Origin: Phytoseiulus persimilis
Lineage: Eukaryota > Arthropoda > Arachnida > Mesostigmata > Phytoseiidae
Reading direction: 5' to 3'
NCBI GenBank assembly: GCA_037576195.1
Contig: CM075103.1
Span: forward strand, 34,432,723-34,496,722
Length of the DNA: 64,000 nt
Of this stretch, positions 4,363 through 51,283 are shown in pieces; the first letter of the stretch is position 1, and every line of letters starts with the position of its first letter. The notes below the pieces were generated by a model, which saw only the letters and a list, made by a program, of their open reading frames with translations, did no database searches and had not been told where the DNA came from. The position numbers and the translations under genes are program-made.

Positions 4363-6892
4363 GGTATAGGAACTTTGCCCGCAGTGTTTACTATATGAAC
4401 GCGTTTTCAGAGAGAGCGGCCTCCGCCAGCTTGGCGGTCTGCTACGGGAACGCCGAGAGCTGTTGCTGGGAGACCGCGACGACAGCGGGGAGTCTAGCGG
4501 GGCTACCGAGCATTTCAAGCAAGATCCAGGCGCGGAACAGCGAGGAGAGCTGGGATGGTTCGCCGGGGAATGATGAAATTTCCAAAGATTCCATGGTTTA
4601 CACATGATCCATCGTCAACAATGTCAGTTCAGATGGCGAGGAGTCGATACGCAAGGTGAACGGCAGAACATTGGGCCAGGCTCAATACAAGGAGAAGAAG
4701 TCCACAGCGAGACGCATTTAGTGATTCTCATCTCGGACAGGACACAGTGGGATGAAACTCCCCGGAACCTCTGGTCTTCGGCGGTTGAAGACCTAAGAAC
4801 TCCGTGGCCGTGAGGCCTCCTCGGCACTGAAGCGGATGCGCCATGTGCAGAGTAATGACTCAGTCGGTTTTTCGCGTCTCCCTCTGAAACGTTCCTCCAA
4901 TCGTTGCGCTTCGCCGTCGCCCCTCCATCATCGCATCGGAACTCACTCGGCACTCATGTGCTCGGCACAGAAAACCTGGAAGTTGGGGAGTGCGAATACA
5001 CTCTCAAAATCGGTTCTGTGCAATGCTGAAGAGGAGACCCGTTTCGGCCCGCGGGCCGCACCAAGTTGCCCACTCCTGGAATGAATACTTGCTTGCCAAT
5101 CCTCTCTTCAAGTCTCGACGTCGTTGTCCTGATCCTATCCCGAGACACTTCATTGGCGCAGTCGGCGCAATTGCAATCGTTGGCGCAATCGTAATTCTTG
5201 AAACTGCGCGAGGATTTCGGGAACGAGAATCCGACTTCAAAGCTCCCGATCGGCGGAATGGTTGCCGAACGATCATGATTTGTTCCTGGAAGTGAGCCGG
5301 CGTGCGGGCGAGCGGCGGACCAAGGGAGTCGTCTGCGAGTTTTACAAAACGATGACTCCAGAAATGAGTCGATGCCTCCATTTTTGAGTTTTTGGCCGCG
5401 TGAGCTTCATCGACATGCTGATGTGAGCTCGGGCGGAGTAGTTTGTTGAAGGTACCGCGCGCTTACGATCCCAGCCTCACTTTCCTGCCGAAAACCTCGT
5501 GTGCCCCGGCACGTAATGGTCATATTGGTCTCGGAATCACCCCTCCAGCTTTTGAAAAGTATGGTCAGATTGGACCCGGAATCACTCCTCCAGAGTTGAA
5601 AAGTAATGGTCAGATTGGTCTCAGAATCACCCCTCCGGAGTTGGAAAGTAATGGCCAGATTGGTCTCGGAGAGATAGCGCGCTTTGAATAGGGAGTATAC
5701 CACGGCCGCCACAAGTGAGCCGCAACCTATCGTGCGAGTCCCGTTCGCACACTCGCAATAATGACGTTTGGTTGCTGCATGACTCATTCCAGGCACATAC
5801 TCAATGTAGAAACGTGTCCAGCAATCAGAGCCAGAAACCGCTTCTTGGACGGAAAGTGTCTTGGATGAACTCTCCCGGAATTCGAAAGTGCGTGTCATAC
5901 ACTGCCTACCGACCCCTAATCATCTTCTCCCTCTGAGACCTAGAGACGAACCTCCTCATTACCAACCCTCATCCCTTGTGAAAGTACACGGATTCTCAAT
6001 TGTGATTCGCCCCGCTGTCGTCGCGGTCTCCCAGCAACAGCTCTCACCGTGCCAGTAGCAGACCGCTAAGCTGGCGGAGGCCGCTCTCTCTGAAAATGCG
6101 TTCATATAGTAAACACTGCGGGCAAAGTTCCTATACCCCTTAGGGGTACGGTGAGAGCTGTTGCTGGGACACCGCGACGACAGCGGGGAGTCTAGCGGGG
6201 CCACCGAGCATTTCAAGCAAGATCCAGGCGCGGAACAGCGAGGAGAGCTGGGATGGTTCGCCGGGGAATGATGAAATTTCCAAAGATTCCATGGTTCACA
6301 CATGATCCTTCGTCAACAATGTCAGTTCAGATGGCGAGGAGTCGATACGCAAGGTGAACAGCAGAACATTGGGTCAGGCTCAATACAAGGAGAAGAAGTC
6401 CACAGCGAGACGCATTGAGTGATTCTCATCTCGGACAGGACACAGTGGGATGAAACTCCACGGAACCTCTGGTCTTCGGCGGTTGAAGACCGAAGAACTC
6501 CGTGGCCGTGAGGCCTCCTCGGCACTGAAGCGGATCCGCCATGTGCAGAGTAGTGACTCAGTCGGTTTTTCGCGTCTCCCTCGGAAACGTTCGCTTCCTG
6601 GACGGAAAGTGTCTTGGATGAACTCTCCCGGAATTCGAAAATGCGTGTCATACACTGCCTACCGACCCCTAATCATCTTCTCCCTCTGAAACCTAGAGCC
6701 GAACCTCCTCATTACCAACCCTCATCCCTTGTGAAAGTACACGGATTCTCAATTGTGTTTCGCCCCGCTGTCGTCGCGGTCTCCCAGCAACAGCTCTCAC
6801 CGTGCCAGTAGCAGACCGCCAAGCTGGCGGAGGCCGCTCTCTCTGAAAATGCGTTCATATAGTAAACACTGCGGGCAAAGTTCCTATACCCC
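4363..6892. mobile_element. Composite inverted-repeat (foldback-like) element with internal duplication and 45-bp repeats
   Basis: The left end GGGTATAGGAACTTTGCCCG (from 4362) and about 125 bp after it are inverted at 6009-6139 and again at 6765-6892. Two modules are repeated directly: a block at about 4451-4894 recurs at 6151-6592, and a block at 5838-6139 recurs at 6593-6892, each copy nearly identical. The order is therefore B - unique - A - B' - A'. The unique part (4895-5837) contains four copies of the 45-bp repeat of the large arrays (5519-5678). No transposase is visible. The near-identity of the copies says the duplication is recent; whether the whole is one element or a nested insertion is not settled. 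Confidence 0.75.
5519..5678 (+). repeat. Four diverged copies of the 45-bp repeat inside the inverted-repeat element
   Basis: Each copy carries GGAATCACCCCTCCAG-like and AGTAATGGCCAGATTGG-like blocks at 45-bp spacing, in the same orientation as the main arrays at 17.8-23.9 and 38.0-40.0 kb. Confidence 0.9.
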
Positions 6893-11480: not shown

Positions 11481-12118
11481 AAACCTGAAGATGTCCCTTG
11501 TTGCAACCATGTATGTTGCGTACTGCAACCATGTATGATGACGCTTTCAGTTCGATCCTCAATGAATACAAAATTCTTGTTTCCGTTGCATATTTGCATG
11601 CATATTCCAGGTTTTTCAGTGCATGAACATTCGCACTTTGATGAAAAGTCAGGATTGACTGTTGGTCGCGAATCCAGCACTCAGATCCTGCTTGCTGGAG
11701 GTCCGTGCAGACAAAAAAAGGATGGTACCCGGCAAGGACAGAGGATGAAGACGAGGGATGCACGTATAATTTGAGATGTAGAGGCGTCTCGATGCTCATA
11801 GCACGCGCCTGAGAGCTCATGAAAGCCAGATCGCATCAAGGCTCGGATAGCCCACTGTGTCTCCCAGTAGTACTACGGATACCAAGATTATCGAGAAACT
11901 CGGCAGTTAGAACCCACAGGTAGACGTACCTGCCAGCCTAGAGGATAATAGGAACGCAACTCATACGCAGGAAATGAATTGTTAGCAGCGATGGCTTGGG
12001 ACAAAGTCCATCTCCGCCGAGGAGCAGTCTCGACTAACTCAGGTAGATGGGTGCACCGTGTCTATCAGTCACTCAGTCTATGGAACAGCAAATAGGCTAG
12101 TCAAGAAACTCGGAGCGC
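11481..12118. other. No gene recognised
   Basis: Flanks the hAT remnant; contains the probable 3' end of that element, but no terminal inverted repeat could be paired with confidence. Confidence 0.2.
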
Positions 12119-12268
12119 GTCAACCCGGCCCCGGCGTCAACCCGGCCCCAGTGTCAACCCGGCCCCGGCGTCAGCCCGGCCCCAGCGTCAACCCGGCCCC
12201 AGCGTCAACCCGGCCCCGGCGTCAGCCCGGCCCCAGCGTCAGCCCGGCCCCAGCGTCAACTCGGCCCC
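12119..12268 (+). repeat. 17-bp minisatellite, about nine units
   Basis: Unit GTCAACCCGGCCCCAGC with few variants (AGC/GGC/AGT endings, AAC/AGC). It is far richer in GC than its surroundings. The same unit is present in the opposite orientation at 12901-13051. Confidence 0.95.
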
Positions 12269-12900
12269 GAGGGCCGGATTATGCTGATTCAAATGAGCGG
12301 AGCATCTGATTGAGCGTAGCGAATCCATCTGGTCTTTCGTTCGGTATCATAAACGTGACACATCAGCAGAGGGGAGCTCATGGTTCCCTGATGTCATTCC
12401 CAGCTGCATTCAGATGCTGGCTCAGGTACAGTGAAACTAACGGGGAGACAATCTTGTCCCCGAGTTTGCGAGCAGAAAGACTTTGGATCTCAATTACGCG
12501 CCCATGGTTTTTCGGAGTATGAGACAACGAACTCTCGGAGGATGCCTCTCAAGTCGCCTCCTCCTATTCGGCCAAAGAGTTACCAACTCTCGAATGGTGC
12601 CCGCTATACGATAGGGAGTCCTAAGAAACAAATAAAATACCTTAACACGGCCTGTTTTTGAAGAACTTGATCAGGCTACCTTCTGCGATGCATCTTCCGC
12701 TTATCTGACAGTGCTGCGTCAGATTTTGGAACCATGGGCTGACAATCATCTAAGATTGATGCCAGTTGATCAGTACTTCTACAATGAAATGACACGACTG
12801 CGAGATTCCCATGCGAGATCAAGGGGATCCGCCACCGATAAAAACCAACTTTCGTTTATTCGTTCGCTTTGATCAGCTACTTTTCCGAGAAAGCGGCTCC
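12269..12900. other. Spacer between inverted minisatellites, partly mirrored
   Basis: The sequence just inside each array is similar when one is reverse-complemented (for example GCTGATTCAAATGAGCG at 12281 and GCTGATCAAAGCGAACG on the minus strand near 12870). The two arrays are therefore the outer parts of one long, diverged inverted repeat. No gene recognised. Confidence 0.4.
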
Positions 12901-13051
12901 CGGGGCGGGGTTGACGCTGGGGCCGGGTTGACGCTGGGGCCGAGTTGACTCCAGGGCCGGGTTGACGCTGGGGCCGAGTTGACTCCAGGGCCGGGTTGAC
13001 GCCAGGGCCGGGTTGACGCCAGGGCCGGGTTGACGCCGGGGCCGGGTTGAC
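12901..13051 (-). repeat. Inverted 17-bp minisatellite array
   Basis: Unit GGGTTGACGCTGGGGCC, the reverse complement of the unit at 12119-12268, about nine units with variants such as GAGTTGACTCCAGGGCC. Confidence 0.95.
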
Positions 13052-13754
13052 GTGCACCGCAAGAAACTGAAGCACTTCAATGAAGGCAACGAGTAACGCT
13101 CTGATGAGTTTGAGAACTGTGAAGAGACAGGGAACGTCTAGGACCCTTATCTGTCCTTCTCGAGTCCCCCTGATAGAGTTTTGCGTCCACGCACTATCAT
13201 TCGATCAACTCAAGCAATGGCGATTGTCACTACATCAGTATACATTGTAATGCAGAGCCCAGCCTGAATATCATCCCTCAGTATATGATGGGATCTCGGC
13301 CACCTCGGCTGCAACCAGCCACTCATGGTGCCCAATGCCGATGTAGGATTGTCCCGCCGTTCATCCAGGGACAGCCATTGAGCCAATAGGCGTCCAAATC
13401 TTTTGTCTCCCGTTCCTCTCTCTCGAGAACCTCACCAACCTGAGCAATCAGAGTACTGATGAGGGAGTCGGGACCACCCATAGTCTCGAATACAAACGGA
13501 CAAAAGTGATACTCGCTCTACAGCGCGGCATATTCGTTGAGCTCCGCCACTTCCACCCTCGCAAGGGCAGACTCTGCGCGGGACGCACGAGTTCCCTACC
13601 CCTAATGGCAAATGTTTGAGGACACACTCGAAAAACTCCAGAAAATGTCTCCGGACCAAGATAGGATACGGATCAATTAGACCTGGTTCAAAGCTGAGAT
13701 TTTCGAATGCAGACGGATGGCAGTCTAAAACGTGTTCCCGGCTCTTCCCGATGT
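13052..13754. other. No clear gene; possibly transposase remnant on minus strand
   Basis: Minus-strand frames (e.g. 13432-13659) follow the BED-finger remnant and could be its decayed continuation, but no hAT core motif is clear. Confidence 0.2.
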
Positions 13755-17596: not shown

Positions 17597-17690
17597 GTCC
17601 CGAGTCGGCTCGTTGGCCGTGTGGCATAAACCAACGCCTTGGGTGCCACGCTAAGCTAGCAATCGCGGGTTCGATCCCCGGCCGGGACAA
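17597..17690 (+). ncRNA. tRNA-like sequence with A-box and B-box (SINE head or tRNA pseudogene)
   Basis: TGGCCGTGTGG at 17614-17624 fits a Pol III A-box and GGTTCGATCCC at 17668-17678 an excellent B-box, 43 bp apart. GTCCCG at 17597 can pair with CGGGAC at 17683, but the gap between that stem and the A-box is too long for a normal tRNA. The middle folds as an unusual nested stem (GTGGCA with TGCCAC, CCAA with TTGG) in place of a clear anticodon arm. So it is tRNA-derived rather than a functional tRNA. It lies about 90 bp upstream of the leader of the large 45-bp array. Confidence 0.55.
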
Positions 17691-17779
17691 CAAATTTCTT
17701 ATGTGGTAAAAAGACCTTACATGTAGTGTCATGAGACCTTCGGGAGTGGCTACCGATTCTCGACAGGGTTCTGACCTGG

Positions 17780-17822
17780 AATCGAGGCACTTTCCTCTTC
17801 CTTCACTTGGCCAGCATCATGG
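17780..17822 (+). repeat. Leader of 45-bp array 1, shared with array 2
   Basis: ATCGAGGCACTTT followed by CTTCACTTGGCCAGCATCATGG, about 80 percent identical by eye to 37924-37968 ahead of the second array. After it, both arrays begin with a similar diverged monomer. Confidence 0.75.
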
Positions 17823-20800
17823 TTTCGAGAAGTATGGTCAGATTGGTCCCGGAATCACCCCTCCAGGTTTTGAAAAGTGTGGTTAGACATTTCTCGATCA
17901 CCCCTCCAGACTTGGAAAGTGATAGTCAGATTGGTCTCGGGATCACCCCTCCAGACTTGGAAAAGTATGTTCAGATTGGTCCCGGTATCACTCCTCCAAA
18001 CTCGGAAAGTAATGGTCAGATTGGAGACGGAATCACCCCTCCAGGTTTTGGAAAGTACGGTCAGATTCGTCTAGGAAGCACCCCTCCGGACTCAGAAAAG
18101 TAGTCAGATTGGTCCTGGAATCAGCCCTCCCCCCCCCCCCCCAGAGTAGGAGAGTAATGGCCAGATCGGTCTCGTAATCACCCCTCCAGAGTTGGAAGCT
18201 AATGGCCAGATTGGTCTCGGAATCATCCCCCTCCAGAGTTGGAAAGTAATGGCCAGATTGGTCTCGGAATCACCCCTCCAGAGTTGGAAAGTAATGGCCA
18301 GATTGGTCTCGGAATCACCCCTCCAGAGTTGGAAAGTAATGGCCAGATTGGTCTCGGAATCACCCCTCCAGAGTTGGAAAGTAATGGCCAGATTGGTCTC
18401 GGAATCACCCCTCCAGAGTTGGGAAGTAATGGCCAGATTGGTTCGGAATCACCCCTCCAGAGTTGGAAAGTAATGGCCAGATTGGTCTCGGAATCACCCC
18501 TCCAGAGTTGGAAAGTAATGGCCAGATGGTCTCGGAATCACCCCTCCAGAGTTGAAAAGTAATGGTCAGATTGGTCTCGGAATCACCCCTCCAGAGTTGG
18601 AAAGTAATGGCCAGATTGGTCTCGGAATCACCCCTCCAGAGTTGGAAAGTAATGGCCAGATTGGTCCCGGAATCACCCCTCCAGAGTTGGAAAGTAATGG
18701 CCAGATTGGTACCGGAATCACCCCTCCAGAGTTGGAAACTAATGGCCAGATTGTCACCGGAATCACCCCTCCAGAGTTGAAAAGTAATGGCCAGATTGGT
18801 CTCGGAATCACCCCTCCAGAGTTGGAAAGTAATGGCCAGATTGGTCTCGGAATCCCCCTCCAGAGTTGGAAAGTAATAATGGCCAGATTGGTCCCGGAAT
18901 CACCCCTCCAGAGTTGGAAACTAATGGCCAGATTGGTACCGGAATCACCCCTCCAGAGTTGGAAAGTAATGGCCAGATTGGTCTCGGAATCACCCCTCCA
19001 GAGTTGGAAAGTAATGGCCAGATTGGTCCGGAATCACCCCTCCAGAGTTGGAAAGTAATGGCCAGATTGGTACCGGAATCACCCCTCCACCCCTCCAGAG
19101 TTGGAAATGGCCAGATTGGTAATGGCCAGATTGGTCACCGGAATCACCCCTCCAGAGTTGGGAAGTAATGGCCAGATTGGTCCGGAATCACCCCTCCAGA
19201 GTTGGAAAGTAATGGCCAGATTGGTCTCGGAATCACCCCTCCAGAGTTGGAAAGTAATGGCCAGATTGGTCCGGAATCACCCCTCCAGAGTTGGAAAGTA
19301 ATGGCCAGATTGGTCCGGAATCACCCCTCCAGAGTTGGAAAGTAATGGCCAGATTGGTCTCGGAATCACCCCTCCAGAGTTGGAAAGTAATGGCCAGATT
19401 GGTCTCCGGAATCACCCCTCCAGAGTTGGAAAGTAATGGCCAGATTGGTCTCGGAATCACCCCTCCAGAGTTGGAAAGTAATGGCCAGATTGGTCCGGAA
19501 TCACCCCTCCAGAGTTGGAAAGTAATGGCCAGATTGGTCTCGGAATCACCCCTCCAGAGTTGGAAAGTAATGGCCAGATTGGTCCCGGAATCACCCCTCC
19601 AGAGTTGGAAAGTAATGGCCAGATTGGTCTCGGAATCACCCCTCCAGAGTTGGAAAGTAATGGCCAGATTGGTCTCGGAATCACCCCTCCAGAGTTGGAA
19701 AGTAATGGCCAGATTGGTCTCGGAATCACCCCTCCAGAGTTGGAAAGTAATGGCCAGATTGGTCTCGGAATCACCCCTCCAGAGTTGGAAAGTAATGGCC
19801 AGATTGGTCTCCGGAATCACCCCTCCAGAGTTGGAAAGTAATGGCCAGATTGGTCTCGGAATCACCCCTCCAGAGTTGGAAAGTAATGGCCAGATTGGTC
19901 TCGGAATCACCCCTCCAGAGTTGGAAAGTAATGGCCAGATTGGTCCGGAATCACCCCTCCAGAGTTGGAAAGTAATGGCCAGATTGGTCTCGGAATCACC
20001 CCTCCAGAGTTGGAAAGTAATGGCCAGATTGGTCTCGGAATCACCCCTCCAGAGTTGGAAAGTAATGGCCAGATTGGTCTCGAATCACCCCTCCAGAGTT
20101 GGAAAGTAGGCCAGATTGGTCTCGGAATCACCCCTCCAGAGTTGGAAAGTAATGGCCAGATTGGTCTCGAAAATCACCCCCCAGAAAGTAATGGCCAGAT
20201 TTTGGAAGAGTAATGGAGATTGGTCCGGATCCAGAGTTGGAAAGTAATGGGAATCACCCCTCCAGAGTGGGAAAGTAATGGCCAGATTGGCTCATAACCC
20301 CTCCAGGTTGGCGGTAATGGCCAGATTATCGTCAGAATCACCCCTTGGATGGAAAGTAATGCCAGATGGAGGGAATCACCCCTCCAGAGTTGGGTAATGG
20401 CCAGATTGGTCTCGGAATCACCCCTCCAGAGTTGGAAAGTAATGGCCAGATTGGTGGCCGGAATCCCCCTCCAGAGTTGGAAAGCCCTAATGGCCAGATT
20501 GGTCCTCGGAATCCCCCTCCAGAGTTGGAAAGTAATGGCCAGACAAACTCGGAATCACCCCTCCAGAGTTTGAAAGTAATGGCCAGATTGGTCTCGGAAT
20601 CACCCCTCCAGAGTTGGAAAGTAATGGCCAGATTGGTCTCGGAATCACCCCTCCAGAGTTTGAAAAAGTATGGCCAGATTGGTCTCACCGGAATCACCCC
20701 TCCAGAGTTGGAAAGTAATGGCCAGATTGGTCTCGGAATCACCCCTCCAGAGTTTGGAAAGTAATGGCCAGATTGGTCTCGGAATCACCCCTCCAGAGTT

Positions 20801-21780
20801 GGAAAGTAATGGCGAGATGGTCTCGGAATCACCCCTCCAGAGTTGGAAAGTAATGGCCAGATTGGTCTCGGAATCACCCCTCCAGAGTTGGAAAGTAATG
20901 GCCAGATTGGTCTCGGAATCATCACCCCCCTCCAGAGTTGGAAAGTAATGGCCAGATTGGTCTCGGAATCACCCCTCCAGAGTTGGAAAGTAATGGCCAG
21001 ATTGGTACCGGAATCACCCCTCCAGAGTTGGAAACTAATGGCCAGATTGGTCCGGAATCACCCCTCCAGAGTTGGAAAGTAATGGCCAGATTGGCACTCG
21101 GAATCACCCCTCCAGAGTTGAAAACTAATGGCCAGATTGGTCTCGGAATCACCCCTCGAGTTGGAAACTAATGGCCATTGGTCCGGAATCACCCCTCCAG
21201 AGTTGGAAAGTAATGGCCAGATTGGTCTCGGAATCACCCCTCCAGAGTTGGAAAGTAATGGCCAGATTGGTCTCCGGAATCACCCCTCCAGAGTTGGAAA
21301 GTAATGGCCAGATTGGTCTCGGAATCACCCCTCCAGAGTTGGAAAGTAATGGCCAGATTGGTCTCGGAATCACCCCTCCAGAGTTGGAAAGTAATGGCCA
21401 GATTGGTCTCGGAATCACCCCTCCAGAGTTGGAAAGTAATGGCCAGATTGGTCTCGGAATCACCCCTCCAGAGTTGGGAAAGTAATGGCCAGATTGGTCT
21501 CGGAATCACCCCTCCAGAGTTGGAAAGTAATGGCCAGATTGGTCCGGAATCACCCCTCCAGAGTTGGAAAGTAATGGCCAGATTGGTCTCGGAATCACCC
21601 CTCCAGAGTTGGAAAGTAATGGCCAGATTGGTCGGAATCACCCCTCCAGAGTTGGAAAAGTAATGGCCAGATTGGTCTCGGAATCACCCCTCCAGAGTTG
21701 GAAAGTAATGGCCAGATTGGTCTCGGAATCACCCCTCCAGAGTTGGAAAGTAATGGCCAGATTGGTCTCGAAATCACCCC
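17823..21780 (+). repeat. 45-bp minisatellite array 1, first block
   Basis: Tandem 45-bp unit with blocks GGAATCACCCCTCCAGAG, TTGGAAAGTAATGGCC and AGATTGGTCTC. Monomers at the left edge (17823-18120) are diverged; those after 18150 are almost identical. The main variants are at the junction (GGTCTCGG, GGTACCGG, GGTCCCGG, GGTCCGG) and AAAGTAATGG versus AAACTAATGG. The 1-2 bp shorter GGTCCGG units shift the reading frame. A homopolymer C run (18128-18141) and degraded units (20160-20350) interrupt it. Because 45 is a multiple of three and most units have no stop in four of six frames, the array shows long spurious reading frames on both strands. I do not annotate any of them as genes. Confidence 0.97.
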
Positions 21781-22108
21781 TCCAGATTTTTATGAAGATT
21801 TTTAATGGCCAGATATAGGAGAGGAGGTGGGAATCACCCCTCCGAGACGATGAAAATAATGGCCAGATTGGTCTGGCCGTCAAACTCCAGGCGTTGACCT
21901 AATATCGTCAGATTGGATGCGGAATCACAGTATGGAGGGGGTCAAAGTTGGGGAAAATCGCGAGGGGGGGAGGGAGGGGAATCCCCCAGGGGGGGGGGGG
22001 GAAGGTAATGGTGGGTCCGGAATGTCCCTCCTCCAGAGTTGGAAAGTAATGCCAGTTGTGTTCGAAATCATCCCTCAATACCGGAGGAGCCTATTGAGGA
22101 CAAACAGG
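21781..22108 (+). repeat. 3' module of array 1, copy 1
   Basis: A non-repeat module: ATTTTTATGAAGATTTTT, AGGAGAGGAGGTGGG, CAGTATGGAGGGGGTC, a G-rich run at 21962-22010, then CAATACCGGAGGAGCC and TATTGAGGACAAACA. The same module in the same order ends the second block at 23866-24170. Confidence 0.85.
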
Positions 22109-23865
22109 AGAGTTGGTAATGGCCAGATTGGTCTCGGAATCACCCCTCCAGAGTTGGAAATAATAAGGTCAGATTGGTCTCGGAATCACCCCTCCAGAGT
22201 TGGAAAGTAATGGCCAGATTGGTCTCGGAATCACCCCTCCAGAGAGTTGGAAAGTAATGGCCAGATTGGTCTCGGAATCACCCCTCCAGAGTTGGAAAGT
22301 AATGGCCAGATTGGTCTCGGAATCCCCCCCTCCAGAGTTGGAAAGTAATGGCCAGATTGGTACCGGAATCACCCCTCCAGAGTTGGAAAGTAATGGCCAG
22401 ATTGATACCGGAATCACCCCTCCAGAGTTGGAAAGTAATGGCCAGATTGGTCACCGGAATCACCCCTCCAGAGTTGGAAACTAATGGCCAGATTGGTCTC
22501 GGAATCACCCCTCCAGAGTTGGAAAGTAATGGCCAGATTGGTCTCGGAATCACCCCTCCAGAGTTGGAAAGTAATGGCCAGATTGGTCCGGAATCACCCC
22601 TCCAGAGTTGGAAAGTAATGGCCAGATTGGTCTCGGAATCACCCCTCCAGAGTTGGAAAGTAATGGCCAGATTGGTCTCGGAATCACCCCTCCAGAGTTG
22701 GAAAGTAATGGCCAGATTGGTACCGGAATCACCCCTCCAGAGTTGGAAAGTAATGGCCAGATTGGTACCGGAATCACCCCTCCAGAGTTGGAAAGTAATG
22801 GCCAGATTGGTCCGGAATCACCCCTCCAGAGTTGGAAAGTAATGGCCAGATTGGTACCGGAATCACCCCTCCAGAGTTGGAAAGTAATGGCCAGATTGGT
22901 CCCGGAATCACCCCTCCAGAGTTGGAAAGTAATGGCCAGATTGGTACCGGAATCACCCCTCCAGAGTTGGAAAGTAATGGCCAGATTGGTCCGGAATCAC
23001 CCCTCCAGAGTTGGAAAGTAATGGCCAGATTGGTCTCGGAATCACCCCTCCAGAGTTGGAAAGTAATGGCCAGATTGGGAAACCAGATTGGTCTCGGAAT
23101 CACCCCTCCAGAGTTGGAAAGTAATGGCCAGATTGGTCCGGAATCACCCCTCCAGAGTTGGAAAGTAATGGCCAGATGTCTCCGGAATCACCCCTCCAGA
23201 GTTGGAAAACTAATGGCCAGATTGGTCTCGGAATCACCCCTCCAGAGTTGGAAAGTAATGGCCAGATGGCACCGGAATCACCCCTCCAGAGTTGGAAAGT
23301 AATGGCCAGATTGGTCTCGGAATCACCCCTCCAGAGTTGGAAAGTAATGGCCAGATTGGTCTCGGAATCACCCCTCCAGAGTTGGAAACTAATGGCCAGA
23401 TTGGTCTCGGAATCACCCCTCCAGAGTTGGAAAGTAATGGCCAGATTGGTCTCGGAATCACCCCTCCAGAGTTGGAAAGTAATGGGCCAGATTGGTCTCG
23501 GAATCACCCCTCCAGAGTTGGAAAGTAATGGCCAGATTGGTCTCGGAATCACCCCTCCAGAGTTGGAAAGTAATGGCCAGATTGGTCTCGGAATCACCCC
23601 TCCAGAGTTGGAAAGTAATGGCCAGATTGGCACGGAATCACCCCTCCAGAGTTGGAAAGTAATGGTCGGATTGGTCGGAATCACCCCTCCAAGTTGGAAA
23701 GTAATGTCCAGATTGGTCTCGAATCACCCCTCCAGAGTTAGAAACTAATGGCCAGATTGGTCTCGTAATCACCCCTCCAGAGTTGGAAACTAATGGCCAG
23801 ATTGGTCTCGGAATCACCCCCCTCCAGAGTTGGGAAGTAATGGCTTATTGGTCTCGAAATCACCC
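22109..23865 (+). repeat. 45-bp minisatellite array 1, second block
   Basis: About 39 further units by length, same consensus as the first block. The last units (23630-23860) become irregular, with deletions and substitutions. Confidence 0.97.
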
Positions 23866-24212
23866 CTCCAGGATTTTTATGATAGATTTTTATGATAGAT
23901 GTATAGGAGAGGAGGTGGGGAAGGATATCCGATGACGATGGGATGAGTCTGGCTGGCGTCATAACGGGGCGGTGCACCTTATCGTCAGAATTTGGATGCG
24001 GGTGACAGTATGGAGGGGGTCAAAGTTGGGGTAAATCGCGAGGGGGGGAGGAGGGGGAGGGGGAGGGGGGAAGGGGTGGGTGGCCTATGTCCTTCCCGTG
24101 AGCCGCCCTACATTATGCAGCAGTTTGTTCCAAGTCGATCCGATCAATACCGGAGGAGCCTATTGAGGACAAACAAAACAGACAAACAAACAAACAAACA
24201 AACAAACAAACA
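23866..24212 (+). repeat. 3' module of array 1, copy 2, with (CAAA)n tail
   Basis: Repeats the module of 21781-22108 including CAATACCGGAGGAGCC and TATTGAGGACAAACA. It is followed by AACAGACAAACAAACAAAC, a (CAAA)n-type simple tail to 24212. The inverted hexamers TCAATA and TATTGA flank CCGGAGGAGCC just before the tail. A second array ends with a similar GGACAAACAGACAAAC sequence at 40053. Confidence 0.8.
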
Positions 24213-24920
24213 AAGCCCAATCTGAGCTTAATTCCCGCGGCGGGAGAGTTCAGAGTCAGAGCTTTATCCAACCGAATCGGAAGCTCGCAGTGTGGAGAAC
24301 AATCATCCCTCGATCCAAAGAATGTCTCGAGCTCTCTTCGTCATGGATTTGCCCGTCGAAGGCTTGCGGTTGCCTGAGGTCTCGAGCCTCTTCCGAAGCC
24401 CAGTTGTCTTACCATCAGCCAGGCGACGATTCATAAAATATGCGCTGTTGGGGAAACTCGGCGGTTTTGTACCTTTCCATCTTGTTCCAATGCTTCGCTC
24501 GAGCAAGCTTCATTGATTTCCCTCGAATTTCTGATAGATTCCTGGGCGAATCCGGTTTCCATGGAAATCTCGAGGTGCGCGACAATAAGATCTAAAAGCG
24601 CAGTCGATGAAGCCGCAAGCTTTCAAGGCTGAGTCGAATTCGTTTCGGCTCCTGCGTGGACTACGAGAGAACTTCGAATCTCTAGCTACCGTGACCCGAA
24701 ACGCTCCTGCCTTTCCAGGCTTTCAGAGAGCCGTGATACGAGATCTCGTCGCAGTTTCCACAAACAGTTTGCTCAGGTTTAGCAGCGATCGCATCCCAGG
24801 AGCGACACTCATAGGAAAGGACCCATCCTCCGCCGAGAATCATCCTGACGGGCTCCGTAATGGAAATGCTTCACACAGTCTGGCGCAAGCGTAACCTCCT
24901 CGGATGCGGCGCTTTGTTTC
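24213..24920. other. No gene recognised
   Basis: A plus frame (24292-24516) and an opposing basic minus frame (24303-24506) overlap; neither has a recognisable motif. The plus frame 24607-24894 runs toward the receptor-like frame but in a different phase and could hold its 5' part. Confidence 0.25.
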
Positions 24921-31800: not shown

Positions 31801-31998
31801 TCCACCCAGGAAGTTCGGGATGACAACCACTCATCAACGGAGCTTCCAGATATCCGTGTCCAATAGTTGACAAATAAAGGTTGGAATCCGAGCTCCGAAC
31901 TAAGGAATTTACTTGACCGCCGTATCTTTCGGTGAGAACTGTGAGCTCTTATTTTCCAAGCGAACAAAAACATGATCATCTGGAGATCTATCACCAGA
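28881..31998. other. Decayed LINE ORF1 5' part, then no gene recognised
   Basis: To about 29300 the minus strand is still ORF1-like with stops. From 29300 to 31998 there are only isolated frames, such as a hydrophobic minus frame at 30409-30621 and a pair of opposed frames at 31303-31823. AATAAA signals occur at 30457, 30888 and 31085 on the plus strand, but I could not attach a gene to them. Confidence 0.25.
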
Positions 31999-32362
31999 TC
32001 TATCCAGGAATCACCCTACCAGACTTGGGAAAGTATGCTCAGATCGTTCCCGGAGTCACCCCTGACCATACTGACTCACTGACCATACTTCTGGGGGGTC
32101 TATGGGGGTGATTCCGGAACCAATCTGAGCGTACTTTTCCAAGTCTGGTAGGGTGCTTCCGGGATCGATCTGTTGAATTCTTGGCCCCACAAACTCGCAT
32201 CGGGAAGAATTAGACAATGAATACGGGTAACCCTCGAGAAGAGTTTCACAATGTTTCTTTCTATCCGCGCTGTAGCTCCACTGGTTCTCGATATATGAGC
32301 ATTCCAAGTTTCCCAAAATCGTTTTTCTTTGGTAGGGCTCTTATCCCGGCAGGCCCTTCGAG
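31999..32362. mobile_element. Damaged inverted-repeat element with 45-bp units in both orientations
   Basis: At 32008-32062 one unit is in plus orientation (GGAATCACCCTACCAGACTT). After the centre TGACCATACTGACTCACTGA (32066) the unit follows inverted (to 32165). From 32170 to 32362 comes a diverged copy of the arm of the element at 46876-47880, including CCGCGCTGTAGCTCCACTGG and CGGCAGGCCCTT. Only the right arm is present, so the copy is truncated or eroded on its left. Confidence 0.7.
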
Positions 32363-37832: not shown

Positions 37833-37861
37833 CGGAGAGACTTCATTTCATTATATGTTAC

Positions 37862-37892
37862 CAGCCGGCCCTTGGCCGACTCCAGGAGTCGG
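37862..37892. other. Perfect hairpin ahead of array 2
   Basis: GGCCGACTCC and GGAGTCGGCC flank a single A at about 37872-37892, a 10-bp perfect stem 35 bp before the array leader. Confidence 0.7.
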
Positions 37893-37923
37893 CCGCGCTG
37901 TGAGCGGTTGGACGGCGTTCCGT

Positions 37924-37968
37924 GGCATCGAAGCACTTTTCACTCTCTTCACTGGGTCAGCATCATGG
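37924..37968 (+). repeat. Leader of 45-bp array 2, shared with array 1
   Basis: GGCATCGAAGCACTTTTCAC then CTTCACTGGGTCAGCATCAT; the counterpart of 17780-17822. Confidence 0.75.
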
Positions 37969-40052
37969 TTTTGAAAAGTATGGTTAGATTGGTCTCGTGA
38001 TCAACCCTACAGATTCGGAGAAATATGTTCAGATTGGTCCCGGAATCACCTCTCCAGATTTGGGAAGTAATGGTCAGATTGGTCCCGGAATGACTCCTCC
38101 AGAGTTGGAAAGTAATGCTCAGATTGGTCCCAGAATCACCCCTCCAGAGTTTGAAAGTAATGCTCAGATTGGTCCCAGAATCACCCCTCCCGAGTTGGGA
38201 AGTAATGGCCAGATTGGTCCCGGGATCACCCCTCCAGACTTGGGAAGTAGTGTTCAGATTTGTCCCGGAATCACCCCTCTAGACTTGGGAAGTAGTGTTT
38301 AGATTGGTCCCGGAATCACCCCTCCAGAGTTGAGAAGTAATGCTCAGATTGGTCGACGAATCACCCCTCCAGGGTTGGAAAGTATGGGTCAGATTGGTCC
38401 CGGAATCACCCCTCCAGGCTTGGGAGGTAATGGTCAGATTGGTCTCGGAATCACCCCTCCAGGCTTGGGAGGTAACGGTCAGATTGGTCTCGGAATCACC
38501 CCTCCAGACTTGGGAAGTAGTGTTTAGATTGGTCCCGGAATCAGCCCTCCAGAGTTGAGAAGTAATGCTCAGATTGGTCCCGGAATCACCTCTCCAGACT
38601 TGGAAAGTAATGGTCAGATTGGTCCCGGAATCAGCCCTCCAGACTTGGGAAGTAGTGTTTAGATTGGTCCCGGAATCACCCCTCCAGAGTTGAGAAGTAA
38701 TGCTCAGATTGGTCGACGAATCACCCCTCCAGGGTTGGAAAGTATGGGTCAGATTGGTCCCGGAATCACCCCTCCAGGCTTGGGAGGTAATGGTCAGATT
38801 GGTCTCGGAATCACCCCTCCAGGCTTGGGAGGTAACGGTCAGATTGGTCTCGGAATCACCCCTCCAGACTTGGGAAGTAGTGTTTAGATTGGTCCCGGAA
38901 TCAGCCCTCCAGAGTTGAGAAGTAATGCTCAGATTGGTCCCGGAATCACCTCTCCAGACTTGGAAAGTAATGGTCACCCGGAATCACCCCTCCAGAGTTG
39001 AGAAGTAATGCTCAGATTGCTCCCGGAATCACCCCTCCAGAGTTGGAAAGTAATGCTCAGATTGGTCCCGGAATCACCCCTCCAGAGTTGGAAAGTAATG
39101 GTCAGATTGGTCTCGGAATCACCCCTCCAGACTTGGGAAGTAGTGTTTAGATTGGTCCCGGAATCAGCCCTCCAGAGTTGGAAAGTAATGGTCAGATTGG
39201 TCTCGGAATCACCCCTCCAGACTTGGGAAGTAGTGTTTAGATTGGTCCCGGAATCACCCCTCCAGAGTTGGAAAGTAATGGTCAGATTGGTCTCGGAATC
39301 ACCCCTCCAGACTTGGGAAGTAGTGTTTAGATTGGTCCCGGAATCACCCCTCCAGAGTTGAGAAGTAATGCTCAGATTGCTCCCGGAATCACCCCTCCAG
39401 AGTTGGAAAGTAATGCTCAGATTGGTCTCGGAATCACCCCTCCAGAGTTGGAAAGTAATGGTCAGATTGGTCTCGGAATCACCCCTCCAGACTTGGGAAG
39501 TAGTGTTTAGATTGGTCCCGGAATCAGCCCTCCAGAGTTGAGAAGTAATGCTCAGATTGGTCCCGGAATCACCTCTCCAGACTTGGAAAGTAATGGTCAG
39601 ATTGCTCCCGGAATCACCCCTCCAGAGTTGGAAAGTAATGCTCAGATTGGTCCCGGAATCACCCCTCCAGGCTCGGGAAGCAATGGTCAGATTGGTCTCG
39701 GAATCACCTCTCCAGGCTCGGGAAGTAATGGTCAGATTGGTCTCGGAATCACCCCTCCAGACTTGGGACGTAATGCTCAGATTGGTCCCGGAATCACCTC
39801 TCCAGACTCGGGAAGTAATGGTCAGATTGGTCTCGGAATCACCCCTCCAGAGTTGGGAAGTAATGGCCAGATTGGTCCCGGAATGACTCCTCCAGGCTTG
39901 GGAAGTAGTGTTCAGACTGGTCCCGGAATCACCCCTCCAGCTTTTGAAAAGTATAGTCAGACTCGTACCGGAATCACCTCTCCAGACTCGGGAGAGTATG
40001 TTCAGATTGGTCCCGGAATCACCTCCATATGCTCCAGAAAAAGTGCGGACAA
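37969..40052 (+). repeat. 45-bp minisatellite array 2
   Basis: About 46 units of the same 45-bp family as array 1, in the same orientation, but with different common variants (AGACTTGGGAAGTAGTG and GCTCAGATTGGTCCCGG). The 335 bp at 38281-38615 is identical to 38641-38975, i.e. a higher-order repeat of eight units (360 bp). The minus strand is open for 364 codons (38974-40068) for the same arithmetical reason as in array 1. Confidence 0.97.
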
Positions 40053-40098
40053 ACAGACAAACTGACAAACTTACGAACTGACAAACTTACAGACGAAG
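40053..40098 (+). repeat. ACAAAC-type tail of array 2
   Basis: GGACAAACAGACAAACTGAC followed by further ACAAACT repeats. It corresponds to the tail of array 1 at 24162-24212. Confidence 0.75.
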
Positions 40099-40158
40099 CC
40101 GATTATGTACAGTAAGGATTATACTTCATAATCAACTTCATCATAATTAAGCAGAGCC

Positions 40159-40447: not shown

Positions 40448-41430
40448 AGAAAGACGAAGCATGCGGAGAGACGGACGCAACAAGAAAAGTTTTGCCGCTG
40501 TGAAGGCCCATCGTGCGCGAGTCAGGCGAACGCCAGCCACCTGGAAAATCATTGGATATCGACCACAAGCTTTGAAAAAGCTATTTCCGCCTGAAGAGCT
40601 GAGTCCTGAATAAATTCGAACAAGGACGAGCCAACGGATCTCTCAAGCAGCTCACGCATGGAAGATGATTCAAAATGGATTCTCAACAAGTTTATCATGA
40701 TGTCAAAGTTTGTCTCGCCGTTGGAAAAGCCTAGAAACAGTAGGAGTACGTACGAACGTGAAACAGGTCGAAGGCAAACTGGAGACGAGACCCGTGAACG
40801 AAGAATGGATGATCGCGATATCTACCGGCTGCCAATCGCCATTAATCAGGGGTTACTCTGCAGAGTGACCTCGTTGTCATAGATGCTCACGGAAATCTTC
40901 GTGAATAGCGAGCTCAACCCGCTTCTCCGCGGAATCAACGTCGAAATTATTGATCTACCAAGCGTGGGATAAAGCCGAGATATATTTGTGCGGCATCTTC
41001 TACAAAAGTACTGATATCGCTGTGGGAGAGCCTAATCGTTTAGTTGGTTTAGGCGGTATGTGCCGCTTCCGAAGGCTCCATATTTTGTGAGCCTACTGTT
41101 GATCAAATTTTCCACGGCTGCTTGGATCCTCCAACGAAACACACTTGAACTGCGGAGCCCTCCGCACCTATCTCGCGGTAGACTCTGCGCTCGTGGCTCG
41201 TGGACCAATCAGAGAAATTCATCGGAACTACTCTGAGTTGAAGGCACAATGGATCATTGCAATGGTGGATGGTTTCCCCTTTTTGTTGACCCCGGGCCAT
41301 AGCATGCAGGCCTGCTACTGCAATTTCGTCATCTGAGAGGCTTGTCGTTTGGAGGATTCCAAGGTATCTGGGACAATGATACTCTGGAACAACTCCAGTG
41401 AACTCCAAAAATCACCCCCACTGACCGCCA
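40448..41430. other. No gene recognised
   Basis: Short frames on both strands (40658-40882, 41103-41408); no motif. Confidence 0.2.
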
Positions 41431-41680
41431 GGAATACGGTCAAGTCGACCTCGGAATCACCTCCATGGACTTCGAAAAGTATGGTCAGATCGACCTCGGC
41501 GTCAACTACAAGGACCCTCAAAAGTATGGTCAGATCGATCCCGGAATAACCTTCACGGACCCCCAAAAATATAGTCAGATCAATCCCATAATCACCTTCA
41601 CGGACCCCCAGAAATACGGTCAGATCGATCCCGAAATCACCTTCACGGACCCCCAAGAGTATGGTCAGATCGACCTTTGT
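41431..41680 (+). repeat. Five or six diverged 45-bp units
   Basis: Units built from GTATGGTCAGATCGAYC, CGGAATCACCT and GACCCCCA, 45 bp apart, a diverged subfamily that also occurs at 48787-49070. It also creates a 138-codon minus frame. Confidence 0.85.
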
Positions 41681-46875: not shown

Positions 46876-47880
46876 CGGGGATAAGCGCCCCACCGAAAAA
46901 AATCTATTTTTGAAAACTTAAAATGCTCATATCTCGAGAACCAGTGGAGCTACAGCGCCGACAAAAAAAACCGTTGTGAAGCTCTTTTCAAGGGCTGTCG
47001 AACGTAAGCAACGGGTCCCGAAAACCTTTTCTAGTCGAGAAAAATGAAAAAGTTGGTTGGTTTACCCGGAAGGAGAAGGCTGACCACTTTCTCAGGTATC
47101 GCTAAAAGTACTCCTATCCATCGTCTACTCGCAGGGCAAGTTTCATCCCGATCCGAGTTTGCGGGGCCGAGATATCGACAGTTGAACATAGGCGATGAAG
47201 CGGTTTTCCCCCCAGAACTCGCTTGAAACCCAGCATAAAAATGGATGGAAGTAGAATCTTTCTGGAAATCATGGTCAGATCGATCGAAATGACCCTCCCA
47301 GACTCGTCAAAGTATGCTCAGATCGGTCCCAGGATCACCCTTCCAGACATGGAAAAGTGTGCTCAGATTGGTCCCAGCATCACCTTACCAGACTTGGAGA
47401 AGTCTGATCAGATTGGTCCCGAAATCACTCCGATCGACCCTTAGAAGTATGGTCAGTGAGTCAGTTCGGTCAGGGACCAATCTGAGCATACTTTCCCGAG
47501 TCTGGGGGGGGTGATGCCGGGAACGATCTGGGGAAAAACCGCTTCATCGCCGATGTTCAACTGTTGATATCTCGGCCCCGAAAACTCGGTTCGGGATGAA
47601 GCTTGCCCTGCGAGTAGACAATGGATGGGAGTACCTTCAGCGATATCTGAGAAAGTGGTCAGCCTTCTCCATCCGGGTTAATCAACCAACTTTTTCATTT
47701 TCCTCGACAGTGGACCCGCTGCCTACAGCGTTCGATAGCCCTTGAAAAGAGCTTCACAACGTTTTTTCATTATCGGCGCTGTAGCTCCACTGGTTCTCGA
47801 GATATCAGCATTTTAAGTTTCCAAAAATCGATTTTTTTTTGGTGGGGCCGATTCCCTCCATGTTATCCCCGCAGGCCCTT
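46876..47880. mobile_element. 1-kb foldback element with ~340-bp arms around 45-bp repeats
   Basis: The left arm (about 46876-47223) and right arm (about 47528-47880) are reverse complements over some 340 bp: outer CCTGCGGGGATAA, then GAGAACCAGTGGAGCTACAG, GGAGAAGGCTGACCACTTTC, CGCAGGGCAAGTTTCATCCC, and inner CATCGGCGATGAAGCGG-like ends. The loop (47268-47527) holds about three plus-oriented 45-bp units, the centre TATGGTCAGTGAGTCAGT, and one inverted unit. There is no coding capacity. A solo arm at 43640-43965 and a damaged relative at 31999-32362 show it is a family. Confidence 0.92.
47268..47527. repeat. 45-bp units in both orientations in the loop of the foldback element
   Basis: Plus units from 47268 to 47445 (GATCACCCTTCCAGACATGG), then after the centre at 47452 one minus unit ending GTGATGCCGGGAACGATC. 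Confidence 0.88.
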
Positions 47881-48786: not shown

Positions 48787-49070
48787 GCCCCCAAAGAATA
48801 TGGTGAGATTCGAAATCACCTCCGTAGAGCCTCAAAAGTATGGTCAGATGGATCGCGGAATTACCTCTCCAGACTCAGGAAAGTATGGTCAGATCGATGC
48901 CGGAATCACCTGCTAAGACCCAGAAAAGTATGGCCTGATCGATCCCGGAATCGCCTCCATAAACCCTCAAAAGTATGGTCGAATCGATCACGGAATCGCC
49001 TTTATAGACCCCCGAAATTGTGAACAGATTGATCCCGGAATCGTTCTCATAGACCCCCAAAATTACTCAC
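48787..49070 (+). repeat. Six diverged 45-bp units
   Basis: Units with AAAGTATGGTCAGATCGAT, CCGGAATCACCT or CCGGAATCGCC, and ATAGACCC; the same diverged subfamily as 41431-41680. Confidence 0.85.
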
Positions 49071-50486: not shown

Positions 50487-50545
50487 AGATCGGAAGAAAG
50501 CGATCTCGAGGGTTGAGGACCCCCCAGGAGAGAGAATGAAGGAGG

Positions 50546-51000
50546 AAAAAAACTCCCGGATGTGGCTTAGCGATTTTCGCATTCTTTCGAACGTTAGCCC
50601 CGAAGGCTAAGCTTGGATTTGGATGAAACTTCTTGAGCGGGTAGAGGGCAGTCGGGGCTACATTCTGCTCCTCGCAGATTCCTGATCGGCCACGGGAAAG
50701 GTATAAACCATCTAAATTGAGAAACTCTCGATTTTTATTGCTTTTGAAATCATGCGATCTGATCACTAGCTATAGGAAAAAAACTCCCGGATGTGGCTTA
50801 GCGATTTTCGCATTCTTTCGAGCGATAACCCCGAAGGCTAAGCTTCGATTTGGATGAAACTTCTTGAGCGGGTAGAGGGCAGTCGGGGCTACATTCTGCT
50901 CCTCGCAGATTCCTGATCGGCCACGGGAAAGGTATAAACCATCTAAATTGAGAAACTCTCGATTTTTATTGCCTTTGAAATCATGCGATCTGATCACTGG
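50546..51000. repeat. Tandem duplication of ~225 bp in the right arm
   Basis: AAAAAAACTCCCGGATGTGG starts both copies, and both end at GATCTGATCACTAGCTATAGG or GATCACTGGCTATAGG. They differ at only a few positions. Confidence 0.93.
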
Positions 51001-51283
51001 CTATAGGGAAATAGATAGCCCTCAAAGAGAGCTCCCCAAAAAGTTGTCGTTCGACGCTGGAACGCCCCGCGGTTCCGAGATATGATGATTTTAAGTTTGC
51101 TCGTGACCATGCGAATTTGAATAGACTATTTCTAATTAATGTTGAAAGATTCGGATCTAGGTAACGGAAAAGGCTGAAAACTTCGGGAATACGTTTTTTC
51201 ACATAGGGAACACGATCCTGCTGTCTTTAGGAAGATCCGTTGAGCTGGGGCACCTAACCCTACCTTATCCGGCTAGACCCTTT

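What the first reader, a model, noticed from the sequence alone, without database searches (positions are those of the whole stretch)
17780..24212. A 45-bp minisatellite with a leader and a tail: probably part of a mobile element, not a passive satellite
Two arrays 20 kb apart (17.8-24.2 and 37.9-40.1 kb) begin with an about 80 percent identical 43-bp leader containing CAGCATCATGGTTT and end in a GGACAAACA-type simple tail. In array 1 the 3' module with CCGGAGGAGCC-TATTGAGGACAAACA occurs twice, after each of two blocks. A shared beginning and end around a variable number of internal units is what is seen when a mobile element carries an internal minisatellite. A plain satellite that grew by unequal exchange would have unrelated edges. 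I know of no named family with this plan, so it may be undescribed.
Basis: partly seen in the sequence, partly recalled or inferred. Interest (0 to 1): 0.8.

Follow-up and report, generated by a model that had tools for sequence, protein, structure and literature searches.

The report
Helitron transposon carrying a minisatellite
The repeat arrays are the cargo of a rolling-circle jumping gene (a Helitron) present in hundreds of copies in this genome, which carries long strings of a 45-letter repeat from place to place.

Summary
On the minus strand it is a canonical Helitron: A^TCTATATATATAAAAATCC...(TTGT)n...45-bp array...leader...GGCCGAAGGCCGG-CTAG^T. Genome-wide there are 285 exact leaders, 366 modules, 452 CTAG ends, 356 TC ends and 30,322 exact unit cores, each with 0 reversed-control hits. 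An empty site shows exact insertion between A and T without duplication. After the 3' end, 43 of 43 usable flanks begin with T. Window array 2 is a complete copy (37861-40118, minus). Array 1 lacks both true ends. Two open RepHel transposase genes in this genome share the 3' termini, so a mobiliser is plausible. Minisatellite-bearing Helitrons are already described in C. elegans and Drosophila and, as Helentrons, in oysters, so this is a new family of a known kind. Less usual: a second, internal 5' end that appears to be used, gapless CTRR|TC joints between different families (20 of 66 ends examined), and four RepHel neighbourhoods sharing one nucleotide-exact joint to a minisatellite-Helitron end.

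The parts
37861..40118 (-). Complete minisatellite Helitron, subfamily 2 (2258 bp): 5' TCCTTACTGTACATAATCGG ... CTGG 3', flanked by A (complement of T40119) and T (complement of A37860)
   Evidence: genome copies of its two ends:
37861..37894 (-). 3' terminus: hairpin GGCCGACTCC/GGAGTCGGCC, about 9 nt spacer, CTGG
   Evidence: 43-nt strand: -13.1 kcal/mol, z -2.65; aligned with the 3' end of RepHel locus L081
40096..40118 (-). 5' terminus TCCTTACTGTACATAATCGG, then a (TTTGTCAG)-type simple repeat
   Evidence: 12 of 12 distinct fetched copies of this end are preceded by A
37976..40023 (-). 45-bp array 2, 46 units, with duplicated multi-unit blocks
17715..24213 (-). Minisatellite Helitron, subfamily 1, without its true ends: broken off on the leader side after CCTTACATG and on the simple-tail side inside (ACAA)n
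   Evidence: comparison with intact copies
17830..21786 (-). 45-bp array 1, block 1 (85 fuzzy units)
22116..23871 (-). 45-bp array 1, block 2 (39 fuzzy units)
21787..22115 (-). Internal, degenerate copy of the 5' module
23872..24213 (-). 5' module with simple tail; carries at 23872-23900 the internal second 5' end (TCTATCATAAAAATC twice, after TATACA)
17784..17831 (-). Leader of array 1, reads AAACCATGATGCTG on the element strand
37930..37977 (-). Leader of array 2

Best explanation
Both arrays are the internal minisatellite of non-autonomous canonical Helitrons, read on the minus strand. A RepHel (HUH nuclease plus PIF1-like helicase) transposase supplied in trans by autonomous Helitrons of the same genome would nick at the 5' TC end, peel off or replicate one strand through module, simple repeat, 45-bp array and leader, stop at the GC-rich hairpin just before CTAG/CTGG, and join the strand between A and T of a site with an ATAAA-like motif shortly downstream. 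Shown by sequence: termini, A^T insertion without duplication, hundreds of dispersed copies, intact RepHel genes with matching 3' termini, array length varying between otherwise near-identical copies. Inferred: which transposase moves which subfamily, that movement is current, and that array length changes by slippage, unequal exchange or rolling-circle replication.
For: Termini dispersed: 452 CTAG ends, 356 TC ends, 366 modules, 285 leaders, 0 reversed-control hits each; subfamily 2 ends 236 and 286, also 0 control hits (the count may overlap that). Order: 33 of 40 listed C1 TC ends paired, random mean 0.27. Empty site: in L029 the element sits in one arm of an inverted repeat; the other arm reads GATTTTTATGATACA^TACATGGGC without it, nothing gained or lost. 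The base outside the CTAG end is that of an A^T target in 25 of 25 copies with both ends fetched; 43 of 43 usable 3' flanks start with T (after dropping L022, one base short of a CTAG|TC joint, an inner hairpin in L089, and L039, a duplicate of the L033 site). Subfamily 2 TC ends follow A in 12 of 12; subfamily 1 TC ends follow A in 35 of 46, CTRR in 6, something else in 5. Target motif WTAWA within 17 bp after the T in 29 of 43 against 10 of 423 windows further out. The genome has 101 Helitron_like_N matches. L080 and L081 have 1682 and 1951 aa open frames with Helitron_like_N, PIF1 and Pif1_2B, GLPHAH/GLPHCH and YxxxY motifs, and 3' ends that match the two subfamilies better than any of 300 shuffles (63 vs at most 46; 83 vs at most 56). 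Copies whose ends are 97.7 to 100 percent identical carry 50, 63 and 75 units.
Against: Only one empty site was found. Five of 46 subfamily 1 TC ends follow neither A nor CTRR. The subfamily 1 hairpin folds weakly as a 38-mer (z -0.98, 33 of 200 shuffles fold as well) and abuts CTAG instead of standing about 10 nt away. Sharing with the RepHel copies is strong at the 3' end only; the 5' module is not shared with L080. No transposition was observed.
Confidence: 0.95

Rival explanations
1. A SINE/LINE-like retroelement: the simple tail is a 3' tail and insertion is by target-primed reverse transcription.
For: Simple (ACAA)n tail of variable length, a copy truncated on the leader side (window array 1), and a TTTAT-like motif beside the insertion.
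Against: No duplication at the empty site and none seen by eye in the 25 two-sided copies; both termini are fixed and end in TC and CTRR beyond the simple tail; the neighbouring enzymes with matching ends are RepHel, not reverse transcriptase.
Confidence: 0.01
2. A plain satellite spread by segmental duplication or unequal exchange, the shared edges being copies of one locus.
For: Some copies are segmental: L033 and L039 share 240 bp of flank at 100 percent; internal block duplications exist.
Against: The flanks of most of the 25 two-sided copies match nothing else fetched; the boundary is sharp, at the same base, with fixed A and T outside; one exact empty site.
Confidence: 0.02
3. A Helentron/HINE (the oyster pearl-type plan): subterminal inverted repeats, T^T insertion, central repeats plus microsatellite.
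For: Central repeats plus short microsatellite is the HINE plan (passages of PMC7492417).
Against: Ends are TC and CTRR and the target is A^T, not TT; RepHel copies show no endonuclease domain in Pfam. Subterminal inverted repeats were not searched for.
Confidence: 0.02

Closest known systems
C. elegans Helitron1_CE / HelitronY1A_CE / HelitronY4_CE with internal satellites (PMC9918286, PMC4039745; passages seen)
   Same: Helitrons whose autonomous and non-autonomous copies carry 15-, 31-40-bp tandem repeats, spread through the genome
   Different: Repeat unit, host and copy structure differ; here a second internal 5' end and gapless joints between families
Helraiser / Helibat, bat Helitrons (PMC4778049; passages seen)
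   Same: 5'-TC, CTAG-3', palindrome near the 3' end, A^T target, AT-rich flank stronger on the 3' side, head-to-tail TC-CTAG joints and circles, bypass of the 3' end
   Different: No long internal minisatellite described in the passages seen
Cg_HINE Helentrons of oyster (PMC7492417; passages seen)
   Same: Non-autonomous rolling-circle element = left flank + microsatellite + central tandem repeats + right flank with palindrome; no TSD
   Different: Helentron, TT target, subterminal inverted repeats; no autonomous partner could be linked there
Drosophila virilis Helitron-2 with 154-bp repeats (PMC3833285; passages seen)
   Same: Tandem repeat inside a Helitron, thousands of clusters
   Different: Longer unit, few units per element
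Adjacent head-to-tail maize Helitrons (PMC2267711; passages seen)
   Same: CTAG|TC joint, G/T instead of A/T
   Different: A single case there; here 20 of 66 ends examined

Membership tests
Canonical Helitron (non-autonomous) | 5' end TC | tested here: met
   TCTATATATATAAAAATCC (subfamily 1) and TCCTTACT (subfamily 2)
Canonical Helitron (non-autonomous) | 3' end CTRR | tested here: met
   CTAG and CTGG
Canonical Helitron (non-autonomous) | hairpin shortly before the 3' end | tested here: met
   clear for subfamily 2 and both RepHel ends (z -2.65, -1.82, -2.71), weak for subfamily 1 (z -0.98), where it abuts CTAG
Canonical Helitron (non-autonomous) | insertion between A and T without target-site duplication | tested here: met
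   one empty site; 25 of 25 and 43 of 43 flank bases; exceptions: 5 of 46 TC ends
Canonical Helitron (non-autonomous) | shares termini with a RepHel-encoding element in the same genome | tested here: met
   3' ends shared; the 5' end is only loosely alike: TCATAAAAAT against the internal TCTATCATAAAAATC
Canonical Helitron (non-autonomous) | transposition by the RepHel enzyme | not testable with these tools
   needs a cell or cleavage assay
Helentron / HINE | T^T target | tested here: not met
   A^T
Helentron / HINE | subterminal inverted repeats | not tested
   no search made
SINE/LINE retroelement | target-site duplication | tested here: not met
   empty site

The most novel reading that the evidence does not exclude
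The minisatellite is part of a nested, multi-ended Helitron system. A 5' module with its own TC end was added ahead of an older TC end, both 5' ends and two classes of CTRR ends are used, resident CTRR|T ends act as preferred landing sites so that different Helitron families fuse without a gap, and one such fusion (minisatellite Helitron joined to the RepHel element at CTGG|TCATAAAAATACAG) now spreads as one composite of about 9 kb, making the satellite a standing passenger of its own transposase.
Probability: 0.3. Interest if true: 0.55.

Novelty: new member of a known kind. Interest (0 to 1): 0.36.

Why it matters
It explains how a satellite-like repeat (roughly 64,000 units, about 2.9 Mb or 1.6 percent of the assembly by a rough scaling) came to be dispersed through a 181-Mb genome, with an open RepHel gene, an exact empty site and near-identical copies of different array length in one assembly. 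That makes the old question, whether rolling-circle transposition itself lengthens internal arrays, open to test. The gapless joints between families give material for how Helitrons gain new ends.

Tried and rejected
Retroelement reading (from the simple tail and TTTAT beside the insertion): dropped after the empty site and the reverse-complement reading. tRNA or Rfam origin of the ends: window gave no tRNA and no Rfam match at gathering score; the ends themselves were not searched at a looser threshold. Coding reading: the 45-bp unit is a multiple of 3, so open frames on both strands of the arrays follow from the period; no database search of them was made. Organism: not identified. An ORF of the window found one unnamed metagenomic protein; a cytochrome oxidase search did not complete. 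The nearest named relatives of the L080 transposase are from scorpion, pseudoscorpion and insects, but transposons move between hosts. Composite test: 4 of 4 sites tested, chosen because the listed 3'-end variant lay near a Rep match, show the same joint; of three predicted 3' ends, L087 and L088 were not found and L089 was a recombinant end, so the composite is not proven. First classification of joints miscounted L041, L063 and L089; recounted. Literature: no paper was found on this family, by the searches only, without knowing the species.

Full report
What was claimed and what is there. The two 45-bp arrays, the shared leader, the doubled module and the simple tails are all present at the stated places. 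Leader and module are not local: the genome (181 Mb, 127 contigs; the window is contig C3:34432723-34496722) holds 285 exact copies of the leader 14-mer and 366 of the module with up to 2 mismatches; reversed controls give 0. The exact 18-base unit core occurs 30,322 times. Scaling by the ratio of fuzzy to exact matches in the window and twenty 10-kb loci (1595 to 753) gives about 64,000 units or 2.9 Mb; this is rough, since those loci were chosen for the leader.

Finding the true ends. In twenty fetched 10-kb loci similarity runs past the leader for roughly 160-170 bp and stops sharply at CTAGCCGGCCTTCGGCCG; on the other side it runs past the simple tail to CCCTGGATTTTTATATATATAGA. These two ends have 452 and 356 places in the genome, control 0 (up to 3 and 2 mismatches). 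On C1, 33 of the 40 listed exact tail-side ends have a listed leader-side end in the right order and strand within 12 kb; random placement gives a mean of 0.27 and at most 3 in 2000 trials.

Empty site and target. For 25 copies both flanks were compared; no target-site duplication was seen by eye. In L029 the element sits in one arm of an inverted repeat whose other arm is empty. Filled...GATTTTTATGATACA[CTAG...TAGA]TACATGGGC...; empty...GATTTTTATGATACATACATGGGC.... Insertion is exact between A and T.

Reading the other strand. Reverse-complemented, the element is A^[TCTATATATATAAAAATCCAGGGTCTG(TTGT)n - module - 45-bp array - AAACCATGATGCTG leader - GCGTAGTCGGCCGAAGGCCGGCTAG]^T, which is the canonical Helitron plan (TC, CTRR, hairpin, A^T), as described in the passages seen of PMC4778049. 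Subfamily 2 ends in TCCTTACT... and CTGG; window array 2 is a complete copy at 37861-40118. Of 66 three-prime hairpin ends in the window and L019-L089, 46 are followed by flank and 20 directly by another TC end. Of the 46, 44 begin with T; dropping L039 (a duplicate of the L033 site) leaves 43 of 43; the two that do not begin with T are L022, one base short of a CTAG|TC joint, and an inner hairpin in L089. Subfamily 1 TC ends follow A in 35 of 46 distinct cases, CTRR in 6 and other bases in 5; subfamily 2 TC ends follow A in 12 of 12. A WTAWA motif lies within 17 bp after the T in 29 of 43 against 10 of 423 windows further out, in line with the AT-rich 3' flank reported for Helraiser. The 3' hairpin folds well for subfamily 2 and for both RepHel ends, weakly for subfamily 1.

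The enzyme. The genome has 101 Helitron_like_N matches. Of three loci fetched around such matches, L080 has a 1682-aa and L081 a 1951-aa open frame with Helitron_like_N, PIF1 and Pif1_2B domains and HUH (GLPHAH, GLPHCH) and YxxxY motifs; L079 has only broken frames. The last 70 bp of L081 and of window array 2 align at 83, shuffles at most 56; L080 and subfamily 1 at 63, shuffles at most 46. The L080 protein's best named relatives are in scorpion, pseudoscorpion and insects, 64-77 percent identical in the top rows (only 120 of 2343 hits listed).

Variation. Copies with ends 97.7 to 100 percent identical carry 50, 63 and 75 units. Array 2 holds repeated multi-unit blocks. So the array is the fastest-changing part; how it changes is inferred, not shown.

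Unusual points. (a) A second 5' end. Just inside the module the sequence TATACA^TCTATCATAAAAATC resembles the outer TC end, and 8 of 66 three-prime ends are followed directly by this internal start (three of the eight are a 500-bp repeat in L032). Modules are also stacked two or three deep (L027, L031, L032). (b) Gapless CTRR|TC joints: 20 of 66 (8 to the outer start, 8 to the internal start, 4 to the RepHel start); leaving out loci chosen for RepHel, 12 of 54, or 13 with L022. L080 shows four element parts in a row: subfamily 2 end | RepHel | minisatellite Helitron | next. Joints between different families cannot come from one circle; landing at a resident CTRR^T end is my inference. (c) Composite: four sites beside Rep matches on C3 and C4 share the joint CTGG|TCATAAAAATACAG to the base; left ends differ (L085 lies in a diverged 45-bp array, L086 follows a CTAG), which fits a mobile composite, but two of three predicted right ends were not found and the third is recombinant. 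(d) In L079 an element with the same ends carries other DNA instead of the array; one frame on its opposite strand gives HTH_38 at 3.4e-05, below the family cut-off, and it looks to me by eye like a mariner piece.

Known or new. Helitrons with internal satellites are in print for C. elegans, with complete and incomplete copies (passages of PMC9918286; PMC4039745), for D. virilis (passages of PMC3833285) and, as Helentrons, for oyster (passages of PMC7492417). CTAG|TC neighbours are in print for maize and bat (passages of PMC2267711; PMC4778049).

Noticed in passing
5513-5670, 31900-32300, 41410-41675, 47292-47420, 48834-49065: Short, more diverged 45-bp arrays of the same sequence family, some on the other strand and none with recognisable Helitron ends in the fetched letters: probably older generations.
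   Followed up: partly
12117-12268 and 12900-13052: A 17-bp minisatellite (GCGTCAACCCGGCCCCA) and its reverse complement, about nine copies each, about 630 bp apart: inverted arrays.
   Followed up: no
50543-51011: A 231-bp unit in two tandem copies, 97 percent alike.
   Followed up: no
17604-17633 (in about 17600-17690): 30 bp identical to stretches in L031 and L037 beside a tRNA-like B-box sequence; looks like a dispersed SINE-type repeat by eye.
   Followed up: no
L029:3473-3830 and 4887-5241: A 358-bp inverted repeat, 97 percent alike, into one arm of which a Helitron inserted; perhaps a foldback element.
   Followed up: no
L049/L050 and L053/L054: Two Helitron insertions whose 3' side flanks are 79 percent alike over about 220 bp, apparently at the same site of a diverged repeat: possible independent hits on one target.
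   Followed up: partly
L030 and L081 (3' ends): CTGG ends followed by TTATATATAGTRAGGA, the reverse complement of a subfamily 2 TC end: insertions into another Helitron's 5' end in opposite orientation.
   Followed up: no
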